Virus record (IMG/VR): IMGVR_UViG_3300009408_000003
Span: 1 to 64,000 of that record
Source: a virus
Reading direction: 5' to 3' (one strand)
Length of the DNA stretch: 64,000 bases
Part shown: piece after piece, positions 12,771 through 55,828 of the stretch
How the letters are laid out: each line of letters starts with the position of its first letter
How positions within the stretch are numbered: the stretch's first letter is position 1
The notes under the pieces: model-generated
Seen by the model: the letters and a program-made list of their open reading frames with translations, nothing else
What the model was told of the DNA's origin: nothing
The model's database searches: none
Made by a program: the position numbers and the translations under genes

Positions 12771-14375
12771 TTAAATAAGAGCTAAATCTTTTACATAAAT
12801 TTTACCATAAAATTCAGGTCTAACCAATTTCTTAGCATATCTCGTCATTACACCGCGTCTAGGAGTAAAATTTGTTGGATCATATACAAGTGGTGTCATA
12901 ATTAATGGTACATATGGTGCATAAACTGCACCACTTTCTAAGAAGTTAGTACCTTTAAATCCTAACAATATTTCATTAGATGTCATATATGGATTTTTAT
13001 ACACTTGGTATCTGTTACTCATAGATCCAATTTGAGTTACACCTGCTGCGAATGTTAATGCATCCTTATCAGCATTTACTGTAAATCCTGGGATTGATTC
13101 AAGGATTGTAGCTACATCAGGAGAACATACTACGAAATTAGCGCCACCCCTTAATGTTAATTGGTGAATCTTATTAGATACTTTATTTATTTTAATACCT
13201 AAAGTTTGATACCATGTATTTTTTTGGTATGCAAATGCTGCGTTAGCACCACTCCATAATCCAGAAGTTGGGTCATATTCTTCTCCAACAGTTGTTGACC
13301 AATAATCAACACTTAAAGCATTAGATTTAAGTAAATCAAGTATTTCTAAGTCAATTTCTAATGAAATATACTCAGATAACATTGATGTTAATTCAGCTTC
13401 TGCATCAATTGAATGATAAGCATTTAAATCTTGAGCCAATTCAGGTGTCCAAACGGCTTTTAATTTACGTGTTTTAGCAACAATTGGTTCAGATTTTAAT
13501 TCTAAATTAACTTCTGGGATACCTATATCAGTTGCTGGTTCTGTTGGTGTTTTATCTTCAAAATCACCTCTGTTAGAAGCAATTGGTTGTTGAGAATATT
13601 TAAATTCATAAGTACCAGCTCCTAATGCTGCTGTTTCTTTTACAAAGAACACAAAATCAGTTGCTGTTTTTTGTGAATGAGCAGGATAGAATGCGTCTGC
13701 TGCAACGAATGCAGAAGATGATACATAGAATGAACGTACCGCATCAACATCAGGTCTTGTGAACGCAGATTGTGCTATAGTTACTTTTTGAATACTTCCA
13801 GCTGCGATAGATGCAGATAATGATGCATCAAAACCTACTTCTGCCCATGATGCAGTTGCAAATGTTAATGAACCAGTTCCAACTCCTGATAATGTTTGAT
13901 CATTTATAGAGTATGCGAATCTACCTTCACCATATAAACCTTTTACGGCTGCGTCAGTTGATCCTAATTTAGTACTGTTACCACCAAATACTGATGTTCC
14001 AGCAAATGCAGGGTTACCTGCTTGGTTTGTGCCATATTTAAAATCAAGATAGAATATTAATCCTGATGGTAAGTTCATTGGTTGAACTGACACGAATTCT
14101 TTAGCTGCGATTTCTCCGAAGATACGTCTTACTAAAGGTAAAGCCACACCACTCCATTCTTCTGAACCTGCAGAAGTACCGGTAGCAGTTGCTTCATCAA
14201 GCAATTGTTTTGCTTGGTTTTCTAACAACACGGCTACTTGTCCTTGTTGTGTTTTTTCTAAACCTTCTAAAAGTCCAGTTTTTTCCCATTTTCCTTTTAA
14301 TCCACGAGTTTCCTCTAGCATTACGGCTTGTGGGTTCTTTCCTTCCATTAATTTAGATAAATCGAAATTTGCCAT
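12771..14375 (-). CDS. 23: Major capsid protein, gp23-like
   Basis: 534 aa, close to T4 gp23 (521 aa). The first 60 residues are a charged helical pro-region ending QLLDEATATG; LLDE followed by A (cut after residue 61) fits the (L/I)xE consensus of the gp21 protease, as in T4, where gp23 is cleaved after residue 65. Next come conserved gp23 segments WSGVALPLVRRIFGEIAAKEFVSVQPM (residues 74-100) and LPSGLIFYLDFKYG. The C-terminus has RRGVMTRYAKKLVRPEFYG, also characteristic. It forms the hexameric lattice of the head. A good AAGGAA ribosome site precedes the ATG. The scaffold gene lies 16 bp upstream in the same operon. Confidence 0.93.
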   Translation of the reverse strand: MANFDLSKLMEGKNPQAVMLEETRGLKGKWEKTGLLEGLEKTQQGQVAVLLENQAKQLLDEATATGTSAGSEEWSGVALPLVRRIFGEIAAKEFVSVQPMNLPSGLIFYLDFKYGTNQAGNPAFAGTSVFGGNSTKLGSTDAAVKGLYGEGRFAYSINDQTLSGVGTGSLTFATASWAEVGFDASLSASIAAGSIQKVTIAQSAFTRPDVDAVRSFYVSSSAFVAADAFYPAHSQKTATDFVFFVKETAALGAGTYEFKYSQQPIASNRGDFEDKTPTEPATDIGIPEVNLELKSEPIVAKTRKLKAVWTPELAQDLNAYHSIDAEAELTSMLSEYISLEIDLEILDLLKSNALSVDYWSTTVGEEYDPTSGLWSGANAAFAYQKNTWYQTLGIKINKVSNKIHQLTLRGGANFVVCSPDVATILESIPGFTVNADKDALTFAAGVTQIGSMSNRYQVYKNPYMTSNEILLGFKGTNFLESGAVYAPYVPLIMTPLVYDPTNFTPRRGVMTRYAKKLVRPEFYGKIYVKDLALI

Positions 14376-14391: not shown

Positions 14392-15612
14392 TTATTTAAT
14401 GTTAGCTAATTCTTTGAATCTGTCCGCCATAGTATTGCCTTCAGCAATAATTTCTTTTTTCGGTGCGGTACTTGGTACAGCATTCGATGCGAATGATTCA
14501 GTTATTTTTTTTCTTCGTTTAGCAGTACTACCACTTAATTTAAGTGATTCTGCTAATGTAGCGAATACAAGTTTTACTTCTCTCACGTTAATTGTTCTAT
14601 CTAATGTTTCAACCACTTTCATTTTTTGATTGTTGGTTAAATCATAAGAACGGAATAATTTGTTACTATAAAGTAATTTTGCGTTTAATAAGTTAACTTC
14701 ATTGATTGTTCCTTTTAATGAACGAATTGCATTATAAGCTTCTTTAAGTTCATTTTCTTTTTCGTCATTCCAAGGTTTATCGTTGTCATCTGTTTCATCA
14801 GAGCCTTTTTGACTATCATCATCATCGCCATATCCCATTTCTTTTAGGATTTCGTCAAGATCAATATCGTCATCATCATCTGTTTCATCAGTGTCTGCAG
14901 TTGAACTATCATCTTGTCCATCTGCTGCTGGTTCTTTGGTAACGGTGGTATTGACATCATAATCAGCATCAGTATCACCATCTGCATCTGTGTCATTATC
15001 ATTATCGTTATCATCATCAGTAGAATCTTCATTCATACTGTCATCATCATTATCATCTTCAGAGTCATCATCAAGTTCACCTTCTAATTCCGCGATAATA
15101 GATTCTAAATCTAAATCATCATCGGTAGGTGTATCTTCATCTGTATCTGAATCAGCATCCATGTCATCATCTTCTGTTACTGATGCTCCTGTTGGATCAT
15201 CGATTACACCGTCTCCGTAATAATCTTCTCCATCACCTTCTTTAACAACTGATGTGTTGCTATCTTCTGAACCTACTGGTTTAGAGATTTTTGTAGTTTC
15301 TGGGTCAAGTTTAGTATGAACGCCAGTTGGTTGTTCAACACTTGTACCAGGTGCTGCTCCGTCTTTACCTGCTCCTAATTTAGTAGAAGCACCTGTTGGT
15401 GCATCTTCAGCTCCATATTCCTCGTTTTGCATATCATCATCATCTTCCTCATCATCTCCTTCAATTTCTTGTTGAAGTTTTTGTGAAAGAATAGATTGTA
15501 AACGTGGAGTAAAAGCTTCTTCAAGAGCAATTTTAGCATTGGCGATTGCAGTTTCACGTACAGCCTTAGCATCAGCAATTGCTTCTTTTAACAATTTTGA
15601 ATTGTTTTTCAT
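14392..15612 (-). CDS. 22: Prohead scaffold/core protein, gp22-like
   Basis: 406 aa. Residues about 8-48 (KEAIADAKAVRETAIANAKI, then LEEAFTPRLQSILSQKLQQE) are the conserved N-terminal helix of T4-type gp22 scaffolding proteins. The middle 200 residues are extremely acidic runs of D and E with S, T and N, and the C-terminus is helical, ending AEGNTMADRFKELANIK. Scaffold proteins fill the prohead and are degraded by gp21; several IxE and LxE sites are present. T4 gp22 is 269 aa, so the acidic insert makes this one longer. It lies directly upstream of the capsid gene, as in T4. The codon-repetitive DE region produces long spurious frames on both strands. Confidence 0.85.
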   Translation of the reverse strand: MKNNSKLLKEAIADAKAVRETAIANAKIALEEAFTPRLQSILSQKLQQEIEGDDEEDDDDMQNEEYGAEDAPTGASTKLGAGKDGAAPGTSVEQPTGVHTKLDPETTKISKPVGSEDSNTSVVKEGDGEDYYGDGVIDDPTGASVTEDDDMDADSDTDEDTPTDDDLDLESIIAELEGELDDDSEDDNDDDSMNEDSTDDDNDNDNDTDADGDTDADYDVNTTVTKEPAADGQDDSSTADTDETDDDDDIDLDEILKEMGYGDDDDSQKGSDETDDNDKPWNDEKENELKEAYNAIRSLKGTINEVNLLNAKLLYSNKLFRSYDLTNNQKMKVVETLDRTINVREVKLVFATLAESLKLSGSTAKRRKKITESFASNAVPSTAPKKEIIAEGNTMADRFKELANIK

Positions 15613-15824: not shown

Positions 15825-15833
15825 TTAATCCTC
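15804..15833 (-). terminator. Intrinsic terminator after bS21 gene
   Basis: An 8-bp stem (GAGGATTA/TAATCCTC) whose proximal arm includes the TAA stop of the bS21 gene, followed by a U-run on the minus strand. Confidence 0.8.
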
Positions 15834-16037
15834 TAGTTTTTCTGTTATTATTCTTCTATTATTGGCTCTAATTGCCTGCTGCTTCTTTTTTCGTCTAGCA
15901 GTTGTTGGTTTTACATATGCTTGTCTATCACGTAATTCTTGGAGATGACCGGATTCTATAATACGTCTTTTAAAGATTTTAAGAGCCCTAACAATATCGC
16001 CATTTCTTACTTCTACTTTAATTTTTTCTTTACTCAT
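15825..16037 (-). CDS. rpsU: Ribosomal protein bS21 homologue
   Basis: 70 aa. The whole length follows bS21: KVEVRNGDIVRALKIFKRR near the N-terminus (bacterial form: basic, two helices), then a conserved Arg-Lys-rich tail (TTARRKKKQQAIRANNRR). bS21 sits at the 3' end of 16S rRNA on the 30S platform near the anti-Shine-Dalgarno sequence and helps initiation. Phage-borne bS21 is known from metagenomic and pelagic phages. In Bacteroidetes, bS21 is part of the pocket that hides the anti-SD, so a phage copy could change start selection on host ribosomes. It is embedded in the head locus, 14 bp after the 624-aa modular protein, and has its own terminator. Confidence 0.9.
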   Translation of the reverse strand: MSKEKIKVEVRNGDIVRALKIFKRRIIESGHLQELRDRQAYVKPTTARRKKKQQAIRANNRRIITEKLED

Positions 16038-16051
16038 TTTATTATTTTTAA

Positions 16052-17926
16052 TTATTTACTTAAAAGGTATAAAGCTTCTTCAGCTTCTTCTCTATTTTTA
16101 ATTTTTGAGTCTTTATACATATCTACTTTATAACCACGTAATGCATTTGATAACCATTTCATATATTTAGGATAACCAATTTTATCTTCTAGTTTTTCTA
16201 GTTCATCATAAAAGTTTCGTTCGTTTCCATTAACTTTTTTAAAAAAATGTTTAGCTAGTTTATATTCATCATTATGACTATTTATATATGTTGCATTAGA
16301 TACATCGTATTCACTTAATTTTTTAGGTTCAACTGATTCTTGTAGTCCACCTGCTATATTGCCTATTACAAAATCTGGATTAGATACATATTTTTTATTT
16401 ATCAATATAAATTTTTGTTTATCATCTTTTTTCTTTTTAAGTATAATATGAGGTGGTATATTATCCATCATTATAAAATCAGAGTTCCAACCTATTTTTT
16501 TAAAAATTGGACTTAAACCTATTAATTTTTTTTCCTTAGATACTATTTTTTTTATTTTATTAATATCATCTGGAGAAAAATTTTCAGTTATTGATTCATT
16601 TGTATTTTTTCTGTATTTTTTATATATATTATAGTATTTTTCTGCTTGTTTCGTAGCATCATTAACAAAATCTATATCTTCTATAATATCACCATCTATA
16701 TATTTTTTTGCTGATAAATCTAATTCTCTACTCCAAAGTTTAATAAAGTTTTCTAAATTGAATTTACTACGTATAACTTCATTATTAAGAAATTTCTTAA
16801 ATACACTTACACTAAATCCATTTTTAAATAAACTGTAAAATTTATTATCGGTTTTTCCGTCATCCATTGAATACAAACTTAGTGCGCCTTTAACATCGCG
16901 TGTATTTACTGTTTCAGTTATTGATTCATTTTGTTTTGTATATTTGTTAATAACATCTTTTGGTGTCATTAAAGCTGATGGTGGTATTTCTGTTATTGTG
17001 TGTGTTGGACTAGTTAATTTTTTCGCATTTACTAATTTATGTGCGCGTGCTAATTTTAATATTAACTCTATTCGTTGAGTATTTGATAATGGCGAATGTT
17101 TAGAATTCATTATATAATCATCAGAAGCCCATCCAGCGCCAGTTACAATATCATGTAGCATATTATTTACAATACTATCTTCTTTTATTGCTACATTCTC
17201 TTTAATAAATTTTTTAGTAAACAAATCTTTAAGATGTTTTAAAGTTAATTTATTTTTTGGTAATTGTGGAAATTCTTGATATGATTTCTTTACAAAAATT
17301 TTAAAACTTGGTGATTCTTGAGCAATTGTGACAAGTGTAGCTGTTACGGACTCTTTTAATATAGATTCAGTTACAACTGATTTAATATATTTAGTTGAAA
17401 TAACTTGGGTACTTGTTGGGTCTGTTCTAACTTTAAGTGGATTAAATGATTCTATTTTACCTTTAATAGTACGTCCATCTTTTAAAGTTATTTTAACAGT
17501 ATCGCCTTTTTTAGCATTAATTGTTTCGGTTTTCAGTCCTAATCGTTTTTTCATTTCGTTTTCGTTAATATCTCCCAACTTATAGTATCGTGATAATATG
17601 TGTCCCATATCTTCATATAATCCAGTTAATCGTTGATCAAGTTTTTTAGATTCAGTTACAACTGTATCAAATTGTCCGCCTAATTTTTTTAATTCACCCA
17701 TGTTTCGTTTAACTGTACGTCTATCAAACCAATCATCTGTTTCATTTATAGCTAATTCTTGAGCGGCTTCAATAATTCCACCAAGTGTTTCAGCAATCTC
17801 TGTAATATCTGATTTTCTATCTAATTGGTCTTGATATTTATTATAGGTAGATACTATTTCTAAAAAATGACGTTTTGTATCATTTGAAAATTGTTTTGGG
17901 GATTCTATGTTATTATTAGTATTCAT
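16052..17926 (-). CDS. Modular head-locus protein with protease-type linkers
   Basis: 624 aa, no single family. N-terminal 115 residues are helical (ITEIAETLGGIIEAAQELAI...) and resemble a head-associated protein of marine myoviruses. Residues 140-180 look like a small beta-barrel (DTVKITLKDGRTIKGKIESF). Further segments are separated by short linkers carrying (I/L)xE: ILKE at 189-192, ESITE ending 338, ESITE ending 448. Each segment (about 190-330, 340-445, 450-530, 535-624) is a compact basic domain of unknown function. The linkers fit T4 gp21 protease sites, so I infer the product is packaged in the prohead and cut into pieces. It lies in the operon between the ParB-like protein and bS21. 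Confidence 0.6.
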   Translation of the reverse strand: MNTNNNIESPKQFSNDTKRHFLEIVSTYNKYQDQLDRKSDITEIAETLGGIIEAAQELAINETDDWFDRRTVKRNMGELKKLGGQFDTVVTESKKLDQRLTGLYEDMGHILSRYYKLGDINENEMKKRLGLKTETINAKKGDTVKITLKDGRTIKGKIESFNPLKVRTDPTSTQVISTKYIKSVVTESILKESVTATLVTIAQESPSFKIFVKKSYQEFPQLPKNKLTLKHLKDLFTKKFIKENVAIKEDSIVNNMLHDIVTGAGWASDDYIMNSKHSPLSNTQRIELILKLARAHKLVNAKKLTSPTHTITEIPPSALMTPKDVINKYTKQNESITETVNTRDVKGALSLYSMDDGKTDNKFYSLFKNGFSVSVFKKFLNNEVIRSKFNLENFIKLWSRELDLSAKKYIDGDIIEDIDFVNDATKQAEKYYNIYKKYRKNTNESITENFSPDDINKIKKIVSKEKKLIGLSPIFKKIGWNSDFIMMDNIPPHIILKKKKDDKQKFILINKKYVSNPDFVIGNIAGGLQESVEPKKLSEYDVSNATYINSHNDEYKLAKHFFKKVNGNERNFYDELEKLEDKIGYPKYMKWLSNALRGYKVDMYKDSKIKNREEAEEALYLLSK

Positions 17927-17977: not shown

Positions 17978-19669
17978 CTATTTTTTTGTGTCATCTATTG
18001 TAGATATTGTAGAAATGATAGATTTTAATGATACAGATTTAATATTTTCTGTAATTGATTGTATTGTATTTGCTAATTTGTTAGACCCGTTCTTTTTTAA
18101 ATCATTCGTGATTGCATCTATAATATCTTTTCCTGTCCATTGAGCTTTAGCAGATATAGTTGTTGCTATTTTTTCTGTTTTTTCGTCTGGATTTACATAA
18201 TCAGATCCAAATACAGATTTTTTTCTCCAATCGTTATAATTTGGACTAGAAACTCCACCTTTAGGACGTGATAACATTGGATCTTTTTCAAATTCTGGGT
18301 TGTTTTCCAATTTAGCTACCATTTTTCTAGCTTCTTCATCAAAATTAGCATCAACTAATGCAGAATATGCAATTTGTGCCATAGTTTTTTCATATTTTTC
18401 TTTGCCAAGTTTTTTTGGAGTAATACCTGTTTTTTGAATTAAAGAACTAGTAAATTTATTAATTTTTGGATTTCCAACACTAACATTATTATTAGTAGTT
18501 GCTGAACCTTGTTTTTTAAGTTGTGTATTAATATCTTTAATACGTTGATTATTAGCATCCATTTTTTGTTTAACCGCTCTTGAACTTGCAGTTTTTCCTG
18601 CTAATATATCTTGTTGTTTTATTAATTTCTTTTTTAATTTTAATAAATCATCGGTACTTTTAGTATCACTACTAGTATCAGCTTTCTTAGTAGCTACACC
18701 AATTTTTTCAGCAAATTTGTTAGCCATTGGAATAATATCTTTTGCATCTCTATCGATTACAATAACTTTCATATTTTTTGGCTTGCCAGTTTGAATTGCT
18801 CGTGATGTTATAGCAGCCCAACGATGATGACCATCTATTATATATCCATCTCTACTCACATATATAGGTGCGGTTATTCCTGAATTATTAGGATCTTTTT
18901 CTAAAGCTTTTGTCATACTTGCAACCTTAGTACCTATTAGTTCGTTTTGAGTGGCTTTTAGTGAGTCTGATGGTAATTCTGTTTGGTATGTTTTTATTCC
19001 GTTTGTTGCCAGCATTTTTCTAAATAATGGTTCAGTATCAACTTCTCCCGATTTATCCTTTTTCATTTTAGCAGCAATCGTGTTTGCTTCTGGTTTACCT
19101 TTAAATTGAGGCATTTCTGAACGAGGAATACCTAAATTGTTATCACAATATAAGTTAGTACCTGGTATAGTTATTTTACATAAATTATAGTTAGGTGCAG
19201 TTTTTCCTTTTGCACGTGCTTCTTTAGCTAGTTCATCAAGTTTATCAATTTTCATTGATATGATGTGTCGTTCTTTAGGTGAAATATCATCAATATCAGA
19301 TTTAGCATCAAATGTTTTTTTGTTAGCTTTAGGTAATAAATCTGTTATTTTAGTGGATGATACTTCTTTAGGTTTTGGAATATTTGTTATAGATTGACTA
19401 CTTTTGTTATCGGTTGAACTTGCGGATGTTGACTTATCAAATATATTTACTTTTGGTTTAGTACTAGTTGATGTAGTTGCTTTTTTATCTGTCTTTGGTT
19501 TATCTACCACGTAGTTACCGTGCTCATCCTTAATAAATGTTGGCGCATTAGCATCTGTTTCTTTACCCGTTTGTTTGTATCGTCCATGACCAACATGAGT
19601 ATATTTAGAGTCATCTGATTCATTTACTAAAAATGGTCGTAATGTTACTAATCCGCCTATTTTTATCAT
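17978..19669 (-). CDS. ParB-like domain modular head-locus protein
   Basis: 563 aa. Residues 18-57 (DDSKYTHVGHGRYKQTGKET then NAPTF...GNYV) form a small module repeated in the 1913-aa protein. Residues 175-315 contain NLGIPRSEMPQ and then GYIIDGHHRWAAI (DGHHR 279-283), the signature of ParB/sulfiredoxin-fold nucleases, where this segment binds nucleotide. A Lys-rich coiled region (340-390) follows, then a helical C-terminal domain ending SITEN, a candidate gp21 site. Substrate unknown: ParB-like domains bind or hydrolyse CTP or ATP, and some nick DNA. N-terminal FLVNE followed by S looks like a pro-peptide boundary. A virion-internal role is inferred from linkers and location. Confidence 0.6.
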   Translation of the reverse strand: MIKIGGLVTLRPFLVNESDDSKYTHVGHGRYKQTGKETDANAPTFIKDEHGNYVVDKPKTDKKATTSTSTKPKVNIFDKSTSASSTDNKSSQSITNIPKPKEVSSTKITDLLPKANKKTFDAKSDIDDISPKERHIISMKIDKLDELAKEARAKGKTAPNYNLCKITIPGTNLYCDNNLGIPRSEMPQFKGKPEANTIAAKMKKDKSGEVDTEPLFRKMLATNGIKTYQTELPSDSLKATQNELIGTKVASMTKALEKDPNNSGITAPIYVSRDGYIIDGHHRWAAITSRAIQTGKPKNMKVIVIDRDAKDIIPMANKFAEKIGVATKKADTSSDTKSTDDLLKLKKKLIKQQDILAGKTASSRAVKQKMDANNQRIKDINTQLKKQGSATTNNNVSVGNPKINKFTSSLIQKTGITPKKLGKEKYEKTMAQIAYSALVDANFDEEARKMVAKLENNPEFEKDPMLSRPKGGVSSPNYNDWRKKSVFGSDYVNPDEKTEKIATTISAKAQWTGKDIIDAITNDLKKNGSNKLANTIQSITENIKSVSLKSIISTISTIDDTKK

Positions 19670-19707: not shown

Positions 19708-20355
19708 TTATTTAAACCATTTAATACCTGTTTTATATTTTTTGTCAAATTTTTTTATTTCGTTAATTAAAAAATCTGCAGTTTGTGTTTCAGTTAATTT
19801 TTGTGGTATAAGTTTAGTTATTTTTTGTAAAGAACGTTCATCTCTAATAAAATAAGTTATTCCTTCATAATTACCTCTATAAATACCATTATGTATTGCA
19901 ACTTTTCCCATACGATTATCTACAAATAATTCAATAAGATTACCATATGAGTCTCTATTAACATCATATAATTTTTTTTCCAAAATTGATGCCAATTTTA
20001 TCATATAACCATTAGCTAATTTGTTACCTTGACTTGAAAGTTTTGCACCGATTGAATTATATTTTTGTTGAGCTGCATCTAATTCTTTTTTAGCTTTTAT
20101 TACTTCAGCATCTGTGTTTTTATATGAATCTATAATATCTGCAATTTTAGTTTCATTAAGTGAACTAGGATTGTTTCCTGTTATAATTGCTTTATGAGTA
20201 TATAAATCTAGTTTACCGTTTTCAGTAATTCTAACATCATATTGAGTTTTACGAATATCGGATATTCCTTTTGAAACGTGTGTTCCAACTTCTTTTTTAA
20301 CTGAACCTAGCTCAATTTTATTTTCTGCTAAATATTTTTTTATATCAAATCCCAT
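19708..20355 (-). CDS. Head-locus protein with capsid-targeting-like N-terminus (copy A)
   Basis: 215 aa. The first 14 residues, MGFDIKKYLAENKI, are identical to those of the next gene. They resemble T4 capsid-targeting peptides (for example MKTYQEFIAE of the internal proteins), with LAE at the place where gp21 would cut (after residue 11). The rest is a strand-helix protein without a known domain: DVRITENGKLDLYTHKAIIT near residue 40, a coiled helix (residues 80-110), then a basic C-terminus. I infer an internal head protein ejected or retained after processing. The N-terminus and 5' flank share a 59-bp DNA repeat with copy B. Confidence 0.6.
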   Translation of the reverse strand: MGFDIKKYLAENKIELGSVKKEVGTHVSKGISDIRKTQYDVRITENGKLDLYTHKAIITGNNPSSLNETKIADIIDSYKNTDAEVIKAKKELDAAQQKYNSIGAKLSSQGNKLANGYMIKLASILEKKLYDVNRDSYGNLIELFVDNRMGKVAIHNGIYRGNYEGITYFIRDERSLQKITKLIPQKLTETQTADFLINEIKKFDKKYKTGIKWFK

Positions 20356-20373
20356 AATTTATTTTATTTTTAT
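20315..20373. repeat. 59-bp direct repeat at gene start (copy A)
   Basis: Identical in sequence to 20648-20706. Covers the leader, the ATG and the first 14 codons of the 215-aa gene. The identity extends over the non-coding leader, so it reflects recent duplication or recombination rather than selection on the peptide alone. Confidence 0.8.
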
Positions 20374-20688
20374 TTTATTAATATGTTGCAATGATGCCTT
20401 TATTTCAGCTAAATCTGATGATAATATTTTTACATATTCTCCGTCAAAATTTTCTTTATTATTTATACGTGCAGTTGTAAAAACTTTTATTAAATATTCA
20501 AGATTTTTTATGGTGTCTTCTTTTGCTAATTTTACGTTACCTATTCCTTTATTATTATCTATATCAGTAGCCGCTATTTGCAAATATGCTTCTTTTGGAA
20601 ATTTACTTCTATCTCCGGCTTCATACATATTATGCATGCCAGTCCTTATTTTATTTTCTGCTAAATATTTTTTTATATCAAATCCCAT
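20359..20688 (-). CDS. Head-locus protein with capsid-targeting-like N-terminus (copy B)
   Basis: 109 aa. Same MGFDIKKYLAENKI start as copy A, then a different body (PKEAYLQIAATDIDNNKGIG..., ending HINKIKIK) with no recognised domain. A different cargo behind an identical N-terminal tag is the arrangement expected of capsid-targeted internal proteins. The gene ends three bases before copy A begins and starts 14 bases after the prohead protease stop. Confidence 0.6.
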   Translation of the reverse strand: MGFDIKKYLAENKIRTGMHNMYEAGDRSKFPKEAYLQIAATDIDNNKGIGNVKLAKEDTIKNLEYLIKVFTTARINNKENFDGEYVKILSSDLAEIKASLQHINKIKIK

Positions 20689-20706
20689 AATTTATTTTAT
20701 TTTTAT
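20648..20706. repeat. 59-bp direct repeat at gene start (copy B)
   Basis: Second copy of the repeat at 20315-20373; it also runs over the stop codon region of the protease gene. Confidence 0.8.
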
Positions 20707-21290
20707 ATTAATTCTTCTATTATTTCTCGCATTAATGATTGTGCCTTACAATATTTACTGCATACTATTGGTGTACCAAAAGTTTTTGATTCATTAACCG
20801 GTCTCATAAATGCACCTTGTGTTGACGGATTAGATACAAAATCCCAACTAATTAATTCAAAATCTTCGCCTACTCGTACTCCGCCTTCATTACGAGCAGT
20901 AACTGATCCCATTCCACGAGATGAAATTCCCAATAAAATACCAGCTCTTAATAATTCTTTTAAAATGTTTCCAGATGGGGTTGGTAATACTTCAATTGTA
21001 CCAACTAAATCATTTCCATCCCAATGAATTTCTCTAACGTTGTGTGATACGTTTTTTAGATTAATTACTGAACTGTCCGGGTGATCTAATTCACCTAAAG
21101 CGCGTCGTTCTTTAATTAATTGACCATATTTTACTGCTTCGCGTTCTAATACGCGTTTTGGATATACTCTTTCATTTTGATTTGGAGCATCTGCACGTTG
21201 TAAAACACCGCGAACAATAGTTCTACCGTGCGAATCTTCATTAAGTTGTCCTTTAAACAAACTTGTTTCTATTAGTAATTGTCTTTCCAT
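20703..21290 (-). CDS. 21: Prohead protease, gp21-like
   Basis: 195 aa (T4 gp21 is 212 aa). Catalytic segments of the U9/herpes-assemblin-like serine protease fold are visible: His70 in GELDHPDSS and Ser123/124 in LGISSRGMGS, followed by the conserved WDFVSNPST. It matures the prohead by cutting scaffold, capsid and internal proteins after (I/L)xE. Its own N-terminus carries LIE (residue 8) and LNE (residue 18), and its C-terminus many Glu, consistent with self-processing. Its place directly next to genes with candidate cleavage linkers supports the processing model for this locus. Confidence 0.92.
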   Translation of the reverse strand: MERQLLIETSLFKGQLNEDSHGRTIVRGVLQRADAPNQNERVYPKRVLEREAVKYGQLIKERRALGELDHPDSSVINLKNVSHNVREIHWDGNDLVGTIEVLPTPSGNILKELLRAGILLGISSRGMGSVTARNEGGVRVGEDFELISWDFVSNPSTQGAFMRPVNESKTFGTPIVCSKYCKAQSLMREIIEELI

Positions 21291-30020: not shown

Positions 30021-33000
30021 CTATTTTTTATAAAAAATACCTAAAAGTTGATTAAGGGCAGCAAAACCGCCGGTCATTTTAATCGTATGATCATTATATA
30101 CAAAAACGATTCCTTCGCTTGGTACAATTCTATCGATACCACCTATTGAATCTAATCGTTTTAATTCTAATTTTAATTTTTCAATTTTTTTAGGATCTTT
30201 TGATTGAGTAACATCTTTAATCGTTTGAGTTATTCTATCTTTTATTTTTTGTAAAGCTTCATCTGGATTAACGGTAAGTACTGATTTTGTAAATTCTAAA
30301 ACATCTGCACCAATACCTAAAAATATATTTTCGAATTTCATTAAATTTTGTTTTGAAATTTTATCGTGATCATTACTATCAATTTGTTTAGCCCAAGTTA
30401 ATGCTTTATCATCTGATATAGTTTTTGTATTTAATCTAAATGATTTATCTGAAAATGCCCATCGTTTAACTAATCCGACTAACGCAGTTTTATCTAATGT
30501 TGTAGGTGAATTTTTTATAATATAGTTTTCCCACCAAGCTTGATGATACGCAGCTACTCCATCAGTATCTTTTAATCCAAATTCTTTTTCTAAATTATTA
30601 ATTTTACTAATATATGCCGGTTTTTTAGCACTTAAATTTTGATTTTTAGGTAACTTAATAATAGGTGGGCCTTGAATAGTATAAGTATTTTGAACATTTT
30701 GATTTATTTGTTTTATCATACCTGCAAGTAGTTTGGCATCGGTTGTAGATTCTCCAATCGGTTTTCCGTCTAATCCATATTCAAACGTACCATGAAATAT
30801 TAATAATGATTGACCATACGCTATTACATTTACTGATTTTGGAAATATAACTTCAAGCTGCATGAATTTTGCACCATTAGCAAATATTTTATCTTTTTGT
30901 TTTTGAGATAATCCACCAATAGCTTTTGTTAAATCTTGCATTGCGAAATTATATGCATCGGTTAATCCACCTCTACCTTTAAATTTAGCCGCTATTCCTT
31001 TAATATCCATTGCATTTTCTCCGTGGTTCTTTAATTGTCCCGTATTTCTTGCAGCTATCAATTTTCCGTTTTTCCAACTAATTGACAGTGCTACGCCATC
31101 TGTTTTTTCGCGTGTAAATTCTAAATTTCCGTCTAAAGCTTTATTAGCAATATCTTTAAGTTGACCAAACGTTAAATTTACATCAATATCGAATGGGTGG
31201 CTCATGTGTCCATAAGTTCCGCCGCATTGTAATAAAATTTTATCGTTATCTTTATAGTTATTATCTGCTAATACAAACTGTTCAAGATTTTCATCCAAAT
31301 CATCTACTAAATCGTGTATAGATTCATGAACTGTGTTCTTAAATTTAGATACTGAAATTTCATTTTTAGATTCTATATGTAATTCTGGCGTTTTATTTTG
31401 GTGCCACGTAGCGGTTCTTAATATAGTTTTTGCAATGAGTTTATTTGCAGTTTTTATAAATGGTATATTAATATTAGTTTTATCATCTTTTACCATTATT
31501 TCGTTATAGTTAGAAAGAAAATCCTTTAATTCTGATTTATGTTTTGATAATCGTGTAAAGAAATCTATTAATTCTTTTTCTGTTATTTCTATCTTGTTTC
31601 TAGGATCATTAACTCTATCAAAAAAATGATTAGTAAATATAATATCTTCTGGCCTCATTTTATTATCTGCAACTTTATCAATCGTATTTAATTGTTGCCA
31701 TCCCATTTCATGCAAACCACCTTTATCCATTTTATCCGAAAACTTTTTTAATTTATCAAATGAACCAAAACTTTTTAATTTTCGTTGTTTAGCTAATCTC
31801 ATATTATCAAAATTTTTCATTCTCATATGATTTTTTACAATAAAAAATATTTTTGATGGTGTTCCTCCTAAATTAATGATAATATTACGATATTTTTTTA
31901 TTAATGCTGCTGATATTTTTTCATGATCATAATGAGTTATACGACCAGTCTTTGGATTAATTCCGCTAGTTTCATCTTTACCGATATCATGAAACAATCC
32001 CGCTATAGCTAAATTAATATCATCTGGACTTTGTTTTAATGCTCGATTAACTACTGTTATTGTATGTTTTAAAACGTTTCCTTCTGGGTGGTGTATTGTA
32101 TCTTGTCTTATGTGTTTTAGATTTAAAACACGTTTCTGTAAATCAGTAGGTAGTTTACTAAAAAGCTCTTTAAACGTTCTTATTTGCAATTTATTATTTA
32201 TATTAGATTCATTTAAATATCGTTTTTCTTCTTCATTATTAATCCAGTTTCCAATTTCTTTACCTTTTATATTAGCCGGTGCATCTTTCCCAGTTACATT
32301 AATACTAAATTTGACAAATTTAGTATAATCTACTTTATTATGATTACCATAATCTATAATTTGTTTATTTGTTAATGTTGTTCGTTTTTGCTGTTTTTTA
32401 TACTCAACAATATCTTTTGGTTTGAATTTATCTAATGATTGTAAAAATATTACATTAATAATATCTTTTGTAGTATATCCTATTTTATTTAAAACATTTT
32501 CTAATAAATCTTTACTATTTTTCTTTAATAATTGAGCCATTACTACAATATAATCTGAATCATCTATGTATGGTTTATTTATTTTTAAATTTGGAAATGT
32601 TAATGATAAAAATTTTAGTTTTTCCATTAAATCTAAATAGGTTTTAGTTGATTTAGCAGATTCTATTGATTTTATAAATTCCATTCTAATTCTATTTGGA
32701 CTGACATCCTTTAATGTAGGATCTTTCTTAATTGCAAGTAAGGTATCTGTATCCATGCTTCCACCTAATTTAGAAGTAAATCTAACAGCTCGTAATTTAC
32801 GTAAATGATCTTCTGCAAACCTATCTGCTGCATTTCCTACTGTTCTAATTTTTTTATCTTTTAAATCTTTTATACCACCAACTAAATCAACAATTTCTTT
32901 ACGATCAATATCATAAAATAGTGCATTAATTGTTAAATCTCTGCGTTTTACATCCCCCTCAATATCAGTATAATCTATTCCAGTTAGTTTACGATTTTTA

Positions 33001-35762
33001 CCTATATCAGTTCTAAATTGTGTTACTTCATCGCCATCTATTATAACTGTTCCATATTTTATACTGATAGTATCACATTTTAATCCTTCTTTTTTACAAA
33101 TATCAACCATTTCATCTGCTTTTGCATCGGTTGATAAATCGAAATCATGTGGCTTTTTGCCTAAAATAGCATCTCTAACTGCTCCACCTACTACATATAA
33201 TTTTTTACCGTGTTTTTTAAATGCTTTATCAATTTTTTTAACACTTGCTGGTAATGCAAGATTTAATGTATGTTTAGCTTCTGTAATTATGGTATTTTCA
33301 GTTACATTTTCTTTATTATAATTAGTAATAATACGTTTCATTATTTCTGGCGGAATTTTCTCCGTACCAAATCGTTTAAGTACTATTTTTAAAAATGTTT
33401 CTAATGCTTTATCATCAGGTTCGACACCGGCAAATAATGCTGCTTTACCAGCCCCTTTTAATATAGTTTCAGCAACTACGTGTGGAATAAATTCTTGTGC
33501 AACATGACCGGCAAATGCTATAAGACCATGACCAATTCCGCCAGTTGCAACGCCAAAAAGAGCTGTTGTAACTACTTTTATAGCTACACCTTTTAACGCA
33601 GATTTTTCTTCATCTGATAGATTTTTTCCAGACATGAAATGTTTTGCTGCTATTCCTGCATATTTAAATTCTTCTATTTCTTCTTTTGCACCGTGTTTTA
33701 TCTTAATTAAACTACCTTTTAATTTATCTTTAATAGTTTCTGCTATGGTTCGTCTTAATTTAGACTCGCCATTATGCATTTCTTGCACAAAAAAATGTTT
33801 TTCTTCATCAGACCATGTTTCTAATTTTTTACGTACATCTGCAAATTTATCAGTCGTTTTTTGTTTTATTGTTCCAGATACATTTGATTTAGATTTATCT
33901 GAGGTTGATTTATCAAAAATATTTGGTGTTGGACTTGCAGTTTTTTTACCTAATTTTTTTGTACTGGTGGTTACATAGTGACCACTAGCGTTTTTAGTAT
34001 ATACAGGTGCTGATTTATCCTTTTCAGAACCAACTTTTTTATATCTACCGTATCCAATATGTGTGAATTTGTCATCTTCACTTTCAATTATAATATTTGA
34101 GGCTAGTTCGTGTATATGTTTAAATGATACGTCATCCCATTTACGAGAAAGTTTTAATAATGGAATAATATCTAAATTTATTCGTACTGCAACTATCTTA
34201 GCTTTGTTATTTAATGCATATAAGGCCAACACTCTATGATGACCATCTAAAATATATCCGCCTTTAGAAACTACAATTGGTTTAGATAAATTAGATACAG
34301 ATTTAGTCATTAATGTTTCTACTTTATCTCTATTAATATTTTTTTGTGTAAGATTTAATTTTGATATTGGTATTTTTTCAATTTTATATGAATAACCATT
34401 AGCTTTAATATATTTTAAATAGTTTTTTAATTTACTAGATTCAATTTGTGGCATATCTTTACGAGGAATACCTAAATTTTTAAATCCTGTTGTTATATCT
34501 TCGGTTACTATACTTTCAAAAACGTTTGGTGCTTTTTTAAATAATCTGAATGTTGTTATGCTTCTACCATTAATAGTAGGCATGCCGTGTGCATCAACTC
34601 CTATATCTTTAACTACTACTTTTTTATTTTTGAATTTTCCCATTAAAATAGTATCGCCAATATCAACTGGTAATGTTATATTTTCATTCATGTATAATTC
34701 AAATTCGAACTCAATTTCCCTGTCAGCATGGGCTATTTCGCCAGATAACGCTTTTATTTGTGCTTCTGCATTTTTTTCAAGTTGAGTTTTTAATAATTCA
34801 TAACCAGCTAATGTAGCTTTTCGTGTTGCATGTGCATACCATTTTGTATATGCATTACTTGAATAAATATCAATTTGGTTATTCGGTGTCATAGCTCCAA
34901 TTACACCTGCAGGATAGAATGATACAGCTGTTACTGGGCCTTTTGGATAAGTCGGATAATTCTGATAATCTTCAACATCTTTAGTCATTATCATATTAAT
35001 AACCTCGTATCCTATTTTTTTAGCTCGTATTGTTGACACTTTAGAAAATGTATCGAACGTTCCAATAAAACTAGATGGCCCATCATCAGCATCAACTGTA
35101 CCGAGCGAGTTTTCATTTAATAACCATTCTTCAATTGTTTCTTTACTAATTTCAACTATTTCATTTAATTTAGATGTAACTAAATTAAAAATTGTTTTAT
35201 TGTAACTAGGAAAAGCTACCGTTTCAAAGAATTTTTTCTTTTCATCTGTTGTTCCTAATGCTAATCCGTTTCTAACGGTTGTACCACTTAATGTACTAAG
35301 TGTTGGCGCGATAAATACATATCCAGCATCTTTATATGGTTCAGTTGGTTTATTATTATCAAGTTTTCTAAAATATTTTCCGCCTAGCCTTGTTGAATCT
35401 TTTTTACCAACTACAGCAACATATGCAGTAGTATTTTCATCAAATTTACTTAAAATTTCAACTGGTTTATATGGATTTCTAATCTGAATTACATTTGATT
35501 TTGGAATATCAAACATAGTAGTTATTATTTTAAATTTTTCTTTAAAATTAAATGGTGATTTATCTTTAGAAACAACATTAGAAGTACCTATATAGATATT
35601 ATTTTTTCCGAATTTTTTAACTAAATATAAATATATTGCATAATGACCATTATGAAATGGCTGAAATCGGCCTGTAAAAATTACAATTGTTCTTTTTATT
35701 TTATCAGGTGTATCTTCTAAAAGTATTTGTTTTACTAAATAATTACTTAATTTTGTATTCAT
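30021..35762 (-). CDS. 1913-aa multi-enzyme head-locus protein (NMNAT-ParB-CCA/PAP-HD-ligase)
   Basis: One intact ORF. Domains in order: 25-200 NadM/NadR-type adenylyltransferase (GRFQPFHNGH 31-40, SGTTVR 159-164); 240-360 unknown strand-helix module; 425-560 ParB-like (NLGIPRKDMPQ, DGHHR 506-510); 561-600 THIGYGRYKK module; 720-780 Gly/Ala-rich hydrophobic stretch; 850-1080 class II nucleotidyltransferase of CCA-adding/poly(A)-polymerase type (GGAVRD, then DFD 873-875, RRDLTINAL 940-948); 1220-1320 HD phosphohydrolase (HHPEGNVLKH, HD 1258-1259); 1500-1913 ligase/capping-type domain (KTDG 1553-1556, LEV Glu1637, EGIV 1883, IKMTGG Lys1895). Linkers LLE (16), LLNE (217), IIIE (560), IITE (828) and YLNE (1185) fit the gp21 protease consensus. 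I infer a packaged polyprotein cut into NAD- and RNA-repair enzymes; substrates are not known. Confidence 0.8.
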   Translation of the reverse strand: MNTKLSNYLVKQILLEDTPDKIKRTIVIFTGRFQPFHNGHYAIYLYLVKKFGKNNIYIGTSNVVSKDKSPFNFKEKFKIITTMFDIPKSNVIQIRNPYKPVEILSKFDENTTAYVAVVGKKDSTRLGGKYFRKLDNNKPTEPYKDAGYVFIAPTLSTLSGTTVRNGLALGTTDEKKKFFETVAFPSYNKTIFNLVTSKLNEIVEISKETIEEWLLNENSLGTVDADDGPSSFIGTFDTFSKVSTIRAKKIGYEVINMIMTKDVEDYQNYPTYPKGPVTAVSFYPAGVIGAMTPNNQIDIYSSNAYTKWYAHATRKATLAGYELLKTQLEKNAEAQIKALSGEIAHADREIEFEFELYMNENITLPVDIGDTILMGKFKNKKVVVKDIGVDAHGMPTINGRSITTFRLFKKAPNVFESIVTEDITTGFKNLGIPRKDMPQIESSKLKNYLKYIKANGYSYKIEKIPISKLNLTQKNINRDKVETLMTKSVSNLSKPIVVSKGGYILDGHHRVLALYALNNKAKIVAVRINLDIIPLLKLSRKWDDVSFKHIHELASNIIIESEDDKFTHIGYGRYKKVGSEKDKSAPVYTKNASGHYVTTSTKKLGKKTASPTPNIFDKSTSDKSKSNVSGTIKQKTTDKFADVRKKLETWSDEEKHFFVQEMHNGESKLRRTIAETIKDKLKGSLIKIKHGAKEEIEEFKYAGIAAKHFMSGKNLSDEEKSALKGVAIKVVTTALFGVATGGIGHGLIAFAGHVAQEFIPHVVAETILKGAGKAALFAGVEPDDKALETFLKIVLKRFGTEKIPPEIMKRIITNYNKENVTENTIITEAKHTLNLALPASVKKIDKAFKKHGKKLYVVGGAVRDAILGKKPHDFDLSTDAKADEMVDICKKEGLKCDTISIKYGTVIIDGDEVTQFRTDIGKNRKLTGIDYTDIEGDVKRRDLTINALFYDIDRKEIVDLVGGIKDLKDKKIRTVGNAADRFAEDHLRKLRAVRFTSKLGGSMDTDTLLAIKKDPTLKDVSPNRIRMEFIKSIESAKSTKTYLDLMEKLKFLSLTFPNLKINKPYIDDSDYIVVMAQLLKKNSKDLLENVLNKIGYTTKDIINVIFLQSLDKFKPKDIVEYKKQQKRTTLTNKQIIDYGNHNKVDYTKFVKFSINVTGKDAPANIKGKEIGNWINNEEEKRYLNESNINNKLQIRTFKELFSKLPTDLQKRVLNLKHIRQDTIHHPEGNVLKHTITVVNRALKQSPDDINLAIAGLFHDIGKDETSGINPKTGRITHYDHEKISAALIKKYRNIIINLGGTPSKIFFIVKNHMRMKNFDNMRLAKQRKLKSFGSFDKLKKFSDKMDKGGLHEMGWQQLNTIDKVADNKMRPEDIIFTNHFFDRVNDPRNKIEITEKELIDFFTRLSKHKSELKDFLSNYNEIMVKDDKTNINIPFIKTANKLIAKTILRTATWHQNKTPELHIESKNEISVSKFKNTVHESIHDLVDDLDENLEQFVLADNNYKDNDKILLQCGGTYGHMSHPFDIDVNLTFGQLKDIANKALDGNLEFTREKTDGVALSISWKNGKLIAARNTGQLKNHGENAMDIKGIAAKFKGRGGLTDAYNFAMQDLTKAIGGLSQKQKDKIFANGAKFMQLEVIFPKSVNVIAYGQSLLIFHGTFEYGLDGKPIGESTTDAKLLAGMIKQINQNVQNTYTIQGPPIIKLPKNQNLSAKKPAYISKINNLEKEFGLKDTDGVAAYHQAWWENYIIKNSPTTLDKTALVGLVKRWAFSDKSFRLNTKTISDDKALTWAKQIDSNDHDKISKQNLMKFENIFLGIGADVLEFTKSVLTVNPDEALQKIKDRITQTIKDVTQSKDPKKIEKLKLELKRLDSIGGIDRIVPSEGIVFVYNDHTIKMTGGFAALNQLLGIFYKK

Positions 35763-35866: not shown

Positions 35867-37483
35867 TTATCTCATTCCAGGAAGTTGCGGCTGTAATACT
35901 GGTGTTTTTTCTTGTTTAGTAGCAATAACACATGATGTCATTAATAGTAATCCGGCAACAGATGCACTGTGTGTTAATGCAAGTCGTGTTACTTTTGTAG
36001 GATCTATAATTCCAGCTTTTAGCATATTTACATATTCATTTGTTCTTACATTATATCCATAATTTTTTTTAGATGCTTCTATTTTACTAAGAATAACATC
36101 TGGCGATATTCCTGCGTTTTCAATTATTATTCTAAAAGGGGCCTCAATTGCAGTTTGTACAATTTTTACTCCTAGTTGTTCATCTTCGGTTAATGTTTGA
36201 TTTATTTTTAGATTTTTCGATGCGTTTATTAATGCTAAACCACCGCCGATTACAATCCCTTCTTCTACTGCAGCACGTGTTGCATGCAACGCATCATCAA
36301 CTCTATCTTTTTTCTCCTTCATTTCAGTTTCAGTAGATGCTCCAATATAAATTATCGCAACACCACCACTTATTTTAGCTAAACGTTCTTGAAGTTTTTC
36401 TTTATCATATTCTGATGTTGAATTTTCTATTTGTTGTTTTATAACACTTATACGAGATTTAATATCAGTTGATTTACCACCTCCGTTAATAAATGTAGTT
36501 GTATCTTTATCAATATTTATTTTTTCGCAAGTACCCAAGTGTGAAAGTGTTGCATCTTCTAATTTTAATCCAACTTCATCAGATATTACTGTTCCGCCAG
36601 TTAAAACGGCTGTATCTTCTAATATTTCTTTTCTTCTATTTCCAAATGCTGGTGCCTTTATTGCTGCTATTTTTAATGAACCTCTTAATTTGTTTACTAC
36701 GAGTGTTCCAAGTGCTTCACCATCGATATCACTTGCAATTATTAATAATGGTCGACCACTATTAGCAACAGGTTCTAGTAATGGTAATAAATCGTTTATT
36801 GTAGATATTTTTTTATCATACAATAAAATATAAGGATTTTCTAATTCGCATACTAGCGTTTCTTGATTTGTTATAAAATATGGTGAAAGGTAACCTTTAT
36901 CATATTGCATGCCTTCTACCGTTTTTACTTCAATTTCAGTACCTTTAGCTTCTTCTACAGTAATTACTCCGTTTTTACCAACTTTTTCCATAGCATCTCC
37001 AATCATTAATCCAATAGTTTCATCATTATTTGCTGAAATTGTTGCTATTTGTACAATTTCTTCTGGTGATGATACTAATTTTGAATTTTTTCTTAGGTTA
37101 TCTACTATATGATTAACCGCTATATCAATACCACGTTTTAATTCAGTTGGATTTGCGCCTGATGTAACTAGTTTTAATCCTGAATTAAATATTGATTGAG
37201 TTAATACAGTAGCGGTAGTAGTACCATCACCTGCTAAATCATTCGTTTTTGAAGCAACGTCTTTTACAAGCTGAGCTCCCATATTTTCAATTGGATCATC
37301 AAGTTCTACACTTTTTGCAACAGTAACACCATCCTTTGTAATATGAGGAGAAGAAAGTTTTTTACTTAAAACTACATTTCTACCTTTTGGCCCTAATGTA
37401 CAGCTTACTGCAGCTGATAATTTATCAACTCCTTGTTTAAGTTTCATTCTTGATTCGTTACCATGTATTATAATTTTTGTCAT
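35867..37483 (-). CDS. groL: Full-length GroEL chaperonin
   Basis: 538 aa (bacterial GroEL about 545). Group I signatures: [10 protein letters not shown] near residue 30, [21 protein letters not shown] (the nucleotide-site Asp), and [22 protein letters not shown] with the catalytic Asp equivalent to E. coli Asp398. The C-terminus ends PQLPGMR and lacks the GGM repeats of bacterial forms. It should form a ring that folds phage proteins, for example capsid or the giant structural proteins. T4 instead encodes only a co-chaperonin (gp31); no GroES is seen in this window, so it may use the host's. It is flanked by a long leader and a terminator, so it is probably a single-gene unit. Confidence 0.95.
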
Positions 37484-54462: not shown

Positions 54463-54774
54463 TTATGCAACTTTAGTTACTTTAATATTCATTAATTTTT
54501 GTACTTCTAACTTTTTACCTTTATTACTAACAAAAAATCCTAAACCGTCATTATGTTTAACAGCACCTTTAAATTTAGTTGGTATATTACTAGCGATATT
54601 GTATGCTATTTCATCTCCCACTTTTGGTTCGTAGTGTCTAGTCGATGTGAAATCATCAGTAATTCGAGCTTCTTCATTCAACGAAATTATAGAGTTCTCA
54701 AAATGTTTTGATACAACTTTGCCTATCGCAAATTTATTTTTAGATATGTATTCTTTATAATTAAATTTTTTCAT
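54463..54774 (-). CDS. Small protein with targeting-like N-terminus
   Basis: 103 aa. MKKFNYKEYISKNKFAIGKV is reminiscent of the MGFDIKKYLAENKI start of the head-locus proteins but has ISK where they have LAE. The body has a SH3-like strand pattern (PKVGDEIAYNIASNIPTKFK then GAVKHNDGLGFFV). Lies between two tail structural genes. Function unknown. Confidence 0.5.
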   Translation of the reverse strand: MKKFNYKEYISKNKFAIGKVVSKHFENSIISLNEEARITDDFTSTRHYEPKVGDEIAYNIASNIPTKFKGAVKHNDGLGFFVSNKGKKLEVQKLMNIKVTKVA

Positions 54775-55483: not shown

Positions 55484-55828
55484 TTACTTACTTCCGTTAT
55501 AGTGTTTACCATTAAGTGCTTTACTTATAATTTTATTATGTAACCAATCCACAATATCTTTATAATATGGTTCGCCTCTGTGTTGTCCTACATGATGCAC
55601 CATAGCTGTTCCATCATTTACAGCTTTTTCATTATTTGTCATTACAAAATGTGTACTATCACCATGCTTTTTTAAATACCATGGATAACCATTAATGAAT
55701 ATTTTTATCGTATCATTATTATCAGTTGGTTTATTCATTGAATTTTTTGATACTGCTTCTGTTAACAGATTATCCATTCGGATTTCGTATTTATATTTTT
55801 TTTTCATACTGTATTTATTTTCATGCAT
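55484..55828 (-). CDS. Hypothetical protein with LLTE-type N-terminal site
   Basis: 114 aa (107 aa if MKKKYKYEI at 55807 is the start). YEIRMDNLLTEAVSKN near the N-terminus has LTE followed by A, a perfect fit to the gp21 consensus, so it may be another processed internal protein. The body has GYPWYLKKHGDSTHFVMTNN and HHVGQHRGEPYYKDIVDWLH, aromatic and His-rich; no family recognised. Confidence 0.5.
   Translation of the reverse strand: MHENKYSMKKKYKYEIRMDNLLTEAVSKNSMNKPTDNNDTIKIFINGYPWYLKKHGDSTHFVMTNNEKAVNDGTAMVHHVGQHRGEPYYKDIVDWLHNKIISKALNGKHYNGSK

What the first reader, a model, noticed from the sequence alone, without database searches (positions are those of the whole stretch)
20315..20706. 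Two different proteins share an identical 14-residue N-terminus resembling T4 capsid-targeting peptides
MGFDIKKYLAENKI starts both genes and is carried on a 59-bp DNA repeat including the non-coding leader; the bodies differ. T4 internal proteins carry a short leader such as MKTYQEFIAE that is removed by gp21. The layout suggests cassette-like acquisition of new cargo behind a targeting tag, perhaps by recombination through the repeat.
Basis: partly seen in the sequence, partly recalled or inferred. Interest (0 to 1): 0.72.

Follow-up and report, generated by a model that had tools for sequence, protein, structure and literature searches.

The report
Shared packaging tag on phage proteins
Two neighbouring genes of a T4-like environmental phage begin with the same short protein tag, which turns out to be one case of a widespread, apparently undescribed leader that such phages put in front of dozens of unrelated proteins, most likely to carry them into the virus head before a phage protease trims them.

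Summary
In detail: 62 of 63 bases are identical between 20315-20377 and 20648-20710, covering an A-rich translation leader and the first 14 codons of two minus-strand genes (109 and 215 aa) just downstream of a T4 gp21-type prohead protease. The bodies are unrelated. The targeting-tag idea gains strong comparative support. A DNA-pattern scan for F[DN]xKK[FY]LxENK, not required to be N-terminal, put it 2-4 residues after an ATG in 88 of 93 matches, on 56 unrelated bodies; 13 of 20 such contigs of 30 kb or more carry both gp21-type protease and gp23. A cultured Flavobacterium phage (immuto) has four such proteins; this phage has a probable third at 54463-54774. Some relatives fuse two tagged proteins in frame with LxE at the joint. 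Packaging and cleavage are untested. T4 internal proteins work the same way, so this is a new variant of a known kind.

The parts
20315..20377 (-). Repeat copy 1: A-rich leader plus start codon and first 14 codons of the 215-aa gene (tag MGFDIKKYLAENKI at 20314-20355)
   Evidence: 63-nt direct repeat, 62 of 63 identical
20648..20710 (-). Repeat copy 2: the same leader plus first 14 codons of the 109-aa gene (tag at 20647-20688)
   Evidence: 63-nt direct repeat
20359..20688 (-). 109-aa tagged protein; body found only in this virus and one near-identical contig; LxE-type motifs YLAE11|N and NMYE23|A
19708..20355 (-). 215-aa tagged protein; its N-terminal ~57 residues are a conserved domain of the gene that follows the protease in relatives
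20185..20355 (-). Conserved N-terminal domain (residues 1-57, FDIxxYxxxNKxxLGxV...NDIRKT...GKLDLYTHK), proposed leader/propeptide of the 215-aa protein
   Evidence: alignment A1; HMM hits
20152..20163 (-). SLNE68|T, candidate prohead-protease site at the end of the N-terminal domain; the predicted body helix starts at residue 68
   Evidence: model of low confidence; homologues have LxE at the matching junction
20703..21290 (-). Prohead core protease, T4 gp21 type (Peptidase_S77)
   Evidence: Pfam PF03420 E 8e-29, PHROG head maturation protease
17978..19669 (-). 563-aa protein with a second leader type, MIKIGGLVTLRPFLVNE|S (relatives: MIKLGGLVTLKPINE|A)
16052..17926 (-). 624-aa protein with the KHFLEI(V/I)STY body, which in relatives carries either the FDI domain or an MKLTxLLKE leader
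14392..15612 (-). Probable scaffold/core protein, acidic; starts MKNNSKLLKE|A
   Evidence: position between protease and gp23; no family match
12771..14375 (-). Major capsid protein, gp23 type, with conserved propeptide site LLDE|A
   Evidence: Pfam Gp23 1.4e-78; the site has Glu in 28 of 28 distinct relatives
54463..54774 (-). Probable third tagged protein in the tail-gene region, MKKFNYKEYISKNKFAIGKV..SLNE34|E
   Evidence: N-domain HMM E 7.5e-5 within this genome, next best 0.087; not recovered by the independent tag HMM

Best explanation
MGFDIKKYLAENKI is the front of a prohead-targeting leader that works like the capsid targeting sequence of T4 internal proteins. The leader docks newly made proteins onto the prohead core, so that unrelated bodies are enclosed in the head; the gp21-type protease encoded next door then cuts at an LxE site behind the leader. 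The 215-aa protein is the old resident of the slot after the protease, with a ~57-residue leader probably cut near SLNE68. The 109-aa gene is a recent addition: a copy of the ribosome-entry leader plus 14 tag codons now stands before a new body. SHOWN: the repeat, the unrelated bodies, the position next to the protease, the recurrence of the leader on dozens of unrelated proteins in phages with this protease, LxE motifs at leader-body joints. INFERRED: docking to the core, cleavage, presence in the virion, origin by recombination through the repeat.
For: Repeat and unrelated bodies. Gene order protease - tag genes - scaffold-like - gp23. The gene after the protease begins with the same kind of N-terminus in 67 of 79 loci fetched with the protease alone, fused to several unrelated bodies or standing alone. 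One body (KHFLEI) is found behind either this leader or a short MKLTxLLKE leader, switching at the LxE site. Pattern scan without N-terminal constraint: 88 of 93 matches lie 2-4 residues after an ATG, on 56 unrelated bodies, with a second LxE at F+20/21 in 55 of 85. Reversed-peptide control: one match in the whole collection. Both S77 protease and gp23 in 13 of 20 tag contigs of 30 kb or more and in immuto. Immuto has four tagged proteins. In-frame fusions of tagged proteins with LxE at the joint. An HMM made from tags of other phages ranks the two window proteins first in this genome (5e-8, 4e-7; next 0.53). gp23 propeptide site has Glu in 28/28.
Against: No virion proteomics or packaging assay. 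Glu11 is missing in 77 of 83 homologues of the 215-aa protein, so the leader there is not generally cut after residue 11, and many family members are only ~62 aa with no body, more like a core peptide than a cargo carrier. Seven of the 20 tag contigs show neither protease nor gp23 (possibly fragments). LxE is short and common by chance (0.72-0.78 per 22-residue window for the 215-aa family). AlphaFold models are of low confidence (pLDDT 55 and 53).
Confidence: 0.72

Rival explanations
1. The N-terminus is a docking or oligomerisation helix of small prohead-core (scaffold) proteins, comparable to T4 gp67/gp68. Proteins carrying it are core components digested on maturation, not cargo delivered to the host.
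For: Position between protease and scaffold/gp23; many family members are ~62 aa with no body; 107 of 124 distinct protease loci (a partly selected sample) have an F[DNS]I-type start in this slot.
Against: Tagged genes also lie far from the head cluster (immuto_3 and immuto_178; window 54463-54774), bodies are extremely diverse (56 clusters), and up to 7 tag matches occur in one 64-kb contig. These fit accessory cargo better than core parts.
Confidence: 0.17
2. The shared start is only a translation-initiation cassette (A-rich leader plus favourable early codons) duplicated by chance or recombination; the peptide itself has no function.
For: In the window the identity is at DNA level and includes the non-coding leader; genes of this genome mostly lack Shine-Dalgarno sites and have A-rich leaders.
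Against: In other phages the peptide is kept while codons differ: 42 of 181 conserved codons carry synonymous changes between tag copies of one contig, and upstream sequences differ.
Confidence: 0.05
3. The 109-aa gene arose by duplication of the whole 215-aa gene followed by rapid divergence of the body, not by joining a foreign body to a copied tag.
For: The genes are tandem neighbours; an analogous pair (101 and 189 aa) occurs in L070.
Against: Near-perfect DNA identity over tag and leader beside a body with no detectable similarity would need an abrupt switch in rate. L220 shows the same pattern (about 65 identical bases, unrelated bodies).
Confidence: 0.06

Closest known systems
T4 internal proteins IPI, IPII, IPIII and Alt with their capsid targeting sequences (CTS), cut by gp21
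   Same: Short N-terminal leader shared by unrelated bodies (IPII and IPIII leaders identical); aromatic-[LI]-x-E core; gp21-type protease in the same phage; leader-identified genes vary between phages (PMC9026906, PMC12373910).
   Different: Sequence differs (FD[IL]KK[FY]LxENK); leader of the 215-aa family is ~57 residues, mostly with no Glu at the T4-like site; genes sit in the slot directly after the protease as well as elsewhere; in-frame fusions of tagged proteins with LxE at the joint; packaging and cleavage untested.
Propeptides of SPN3US and phiKZ head proteins (e.g. SPN3US gp53/gp54)
   Same: Strongly diverged head proteins share an identical 15-residue N-terminus with xxE sites; propeptides of up to more than 100 residues (PMC5694885).
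   Different: Giant phages with a diverged protease; similarity of sequence to this tag was not tested.
Flavobacterium phage immuto proteins immuto_3, _178, _193, _194 (MW353176)
   Same: Four proteins with the leader M..F[DN]L[KR]xFLxEN[KR]LTxN...LxE on unrelated bodies; protease 50% identical.
   Different: Annotated as hypothetical (one as cobalamin adenosyltransferase); no virion proteomics was found in the literature held.

Membership tests
T4-type capsid targeting sequence / internal proteins | Short N-terminal leader shared by otherwise unrelated proteins of one phage | tested here: met
   Two proteins with identical 14 residues plus a probable third; 56 unrelated bodies in other phages
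T4-type capsid targeting sequence / internal proteins | Phage encodes a gp21-type (S77) prohead protease and gp23 | tested here: met
   Window; 13 of 20 other tag contigs plus immuto
T4-type capsid targeting sequence / internal proteins | Cleavage site [LI]xE directly at the end of a 10-20-residue leader | tested here: inconclusive
   YLAE11|N present in both window proteins, but Glu at that position in only 6 of 83 homologues of the 215-aa protein, whereas 143 of 149 members of the wider tag family have it (most of those loci were fetched with a Glu-requiring pattern)
T4-type capsid targeting sequence / internal proteins | Leader is removed in the mature virion | not testable with these tools
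   Needs N-terminal mass spectrometry
T4-type capsid targeting sequence / internal proteins | Leader is sufficient to package a foreign protein | not testable with these tools
   Needs a reporter fusion
T4-type capsid targeting sequence / internal proteins | Sequence homology to the T4 IPIII leader | not tested
   Only the aromatic-[LI]-x-E spacing was compared by eye; too short to show descent
T4 gp67/gp68-like core proteins | Small core protein encoded beside gp21, with no mature body | tested here: inconclusive
   35 of 85 distinct N-domain proteins have no or a very short tail, the two window proteins do not; no search against gp67/gp68 beyond Pfam and PHROGs, which gave nothing

The most novel reading that the evidence does not exclude
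A widespread, undescribed packaging code of T4-like phages (probably of Bacteroidota): one leader, F[DN][IL]KK[FY]LxENK, admits an open-ended and rapidly exchanged set of unrelated proteins into the head, in some phages as precursors of two tagged proteins in one chain that the prohead protease separates at LxE sites. The leader would allow injected proteins of uncultured phages to be listed by sequence alone.
Probability: 0.5. Interest if true: 0.75.

Novelty: new variant of a known kind. Interest (0 to 1): 0.6.

Why it matters
In T4 the proteins carrying the shared leader are injected anti-restriction factors (Ip1, Ip2 and Ip3 each block a different GmrSD enzyme; PMC12373910), and such genes were found in T-even phages by recognising the leader. 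A recognisable leader outside the T-even phages, on 56 or more unrelated bodies of unknown function, would give a direct list of candidate injected counter-defence or host-takeover proteins for phages that have hardly been studied. The natural leader swaps and tagged fusions also make the rules of targeting and prohead processing testable in a cultured phage (immuto).

Tried and rejected
Relatives of the 109-aa body: none beyond the near-identical contig. Pfam and PHROGs for both window proteins: nothing; for 56 tagged proteins: almost nothing. AlphaFold models of the 215-aa and 109-aa proteins had pLDDT 55 and 53, so no fold search was made. LxE within 22 residues of the domain end (49 of 49) was discarded as a statistic because shuffled or background windows give 0.72-0.78. 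The gapless N-terminal score null was contaminated by the tag itself and is not used. Single-linkage clustering of MKL-leader bodies merged multi-domain proteins and is not used for counts. Portal_T4 and gp19 searches in contigs lacking the protease were uninformative. The idea that the 14 residues alone are the conserved unit of the 215-aa family was rejected.

Full report
THE OBSERVATION. The window holds a 63-nt direct repeat, 20315-20377 and 20648-20710, with one mismatch. On the minus strand each copy covers an A-rich stretch before the start codon and the first 14 codons, MGFDIKKYLAENKI, of a gene: 109 aa (20359-20688) and 215 aa (19708-20355). A contig from another IMG/VR record, nearly identical over the region, has the same arrangement. 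The 109-aa frame has coding-like codon usage (0.34; real genes median 0.28; antisense frame -0.18). After the tag the bodies are unrelated.

SURROUNDINGS. The gene just upstream (20703-21290) is a gp21-type prohead protease (Peptidase_S77, E 8e-29), and gp23 follows further down (12771-14375, E 1.4e-78), with a scaffold-like acidic protein between. The window is part of a 120,327-base virus record. Its genes have A-rich leaders and only 8% show a Shine-Dalgarno-like stretch, as is usual for Bacteroidota (general knowledge); the closest isolates by protease infect Microcystis and Flavobacterium. The repeat holds the ribosome-entry region and tag codons only; it reaches about 22 bases upstream of the start codon, too short for a promoter of its own.

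THE 215-AA PROTEIN IS THE OLD RESIDENT. Of 79 other loci fetched with the protease alone, 67 have in the slot after it a gene whose N-terminus matches (FDIxxYxxxNKxxLGxVxxEVG...NDIRKT...GKLDLYTHK). The conserved unit is ~57 residues. Behind it stand different bodies: none (35 of 85 distinct proteins end shortly after it), a KHFLEI(V/I)STY body (25), an ISFGELDSNKQKQ-type body (22), the window's own body, and a short body in L016/L018. The residue matching Glu11 of the window is N 32, K 28, D 10, H 7, E 6. A T4-like cut after residue 11 therefore cannot be general for this family. LxE motifs stand instead at the end of the domain, and the window has SLNE68|T there. The chance rate of an LxE within 22 residues is high (0.72-0.78), so this rests on the consistent position (E at +2 or +4 in 44 of 49), not on mere presence.

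LEADERS ARE SWAPPED. The KHFLEI body occurs behind the FDI domain in some phages and behind a short leader of the type MKLTQLLKE|NEERP, MIRLSKIVKE|GEEP or MIKLTQLMNE|SEEK in others. In L034 and in L101-type loci the sequence after the switch point is the same...VLIRE|NEERPLATEVKRHFLEI against MKLTQLLKE|NEERPLSNEVKKHFLEI. The switch lies at an LxE site. The window's own copy of this body (16052-17926) has neither leader.

THE TAG IS WIDESPREAD. A profile of the N-terminus found, in the cultured Flavobacterium phage immuto, proteins starting MENFDLKKFLVENKLTTNS. That phage has four proteins with this leader on unrelated bodies: immuto_3, _178, _193, _194. Of 93 matches, 88 start 2-4 residues after an in-frame ATG; a few of these lie inside a longer frame and are the fusions described below. 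With the tag removed, 85 distinct proteins with at least 65 residues fall into 56 clusters (blastp E < 1e-3). A second LxE has its Glu at position 20 or 21 from the F in 55 of 85. In the window's 109-aa protein NMYE23|A falls at position 21. The reversed-peptide pattern had one match in the same collection. In 257 billion bases of bacterial and archaeal genomes there were 10 stretches; clear N-terminal tags lie on one contig that itself carries an S77 protease and on a short contig, L360. Of 20 tag contigs of 30 kb or more, chosen without regard to head genes, 13 have both S77 protease and gp23 and 7 neither. In 8 of 9 protease loci from such phages the next gene starts with an F[DNS][ILM]xx[FW]-type tag, again with different bodies. 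An HMM built from tags of other phages ranks the two window proteins first in their own genome (E 5e-8 and 4e-7; next 0.53). The 54463-54774 protein scores with the N-domain HMM (7.5e-5) but not with this one, so it is only probable.

FUSIONS. In immuto the tagged genes 193 and 194 are neighbours. In L223, L224, L232, L258, L261 and L311 an orthologue of 193 (E 3e-51 to 1e-106) continues in frame into a second tag and a C-terminal body that differs from phage to phage, with ALQE|G, ALQE|N, SLAE|N, ALAE|N or MKE|G before the second tag. L223 and L311 have no Met at the joint, so they are true fusions. This fits a precursor that the prohead protease separates; the cut itself is inferred.

AGE OF THE REPEAT. 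Tag copies on one contig usually differ by synonymous changes (42 of 181 conserved codons) and have different upstream sequences, so the peptide is what selection keeps. In the window, leader and tag are identical at DNA level, so this duplication is recent or recently homogenised. L220 gives a second case: about 65 identical bases across the start and tag of two genes with unrelated bodies.

MODEL. The T4 literature held says that residues 4 and 7 of the IPIII leader serve targeting and residues 8 and 10 processing, that Asp at 10 still allows targeting, and that IPII and IPIII leaders are identical (PMC9026906). The aromatic-[LI]-x-E core of the present tag has the same spacing. The N-domain family keeps the aromatic residue but mostly not the Glu, as expected if targeting and cutting are separable and the cut has moved downstream. 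Established here are the architecture and its recurrence. Core docking, cleavage, virion content and injection are inferred.

KNOWN OR NEW. Sharing of a leader by unrelated internal proteins is known for T-even phages (PMC12373910) and an identical 15-residue N-terminus on two diverged head proteins for SPN3US (PMC5694885). No paper in the library holds the strings FDLKKFL, FDLKKYL or FNLKKFL; absence from this library does not prove that the tag is undescribed. It is best filed as a new variant of a known kind.

Noticed in passing
54463-54774 and 55484-55828: Two small genes between tail genes have leader-like starts: MKKFNYKEYISKNKFAIGKV (probable third tag) and, from an internal Met, MDNLLTE|A.
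   Followed up: partly
30021-35762: 1913-aa protein starting MNTKLSNYLVKQILLED followed by a nucleotidyltransferase-like motif (GRFQPFHNGH); a leader-like start on a giant, possibly virion, protein.
   Followed up: no
15825-16037: A ribosomal protein S21 gene lies inside the head gene cluster (Pfam 1.3e-14), and similar short genes lie at the same place in relatives.
   Followed up: no
35867-37483: GroEL-like chaperonin gene in the phage genome (by inspection of the translation); immuto also has GroES/GroEL annotated.
   Followed up: no
L224, L261, L258, L223, L232, L311: Orthologues of immuto_193 are fused in frame to a second tag plus a different C-terminal body, with an LxE motif before the tag.
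   Followed up: yes
L090:9676-10140: Microcystis phage Mel-JY01, the closest isolate by protease, lacks the tag gene; its next gene carries a KHFLEI-like body with another start (by eye).
   Followed up: no
window 14549-15042 against L085: The near-identical contig breaks alignment within the acidic, repetitive part of the scaffold-like gene; either assembly trouble or real variation in repeat number.
   Followed up: no
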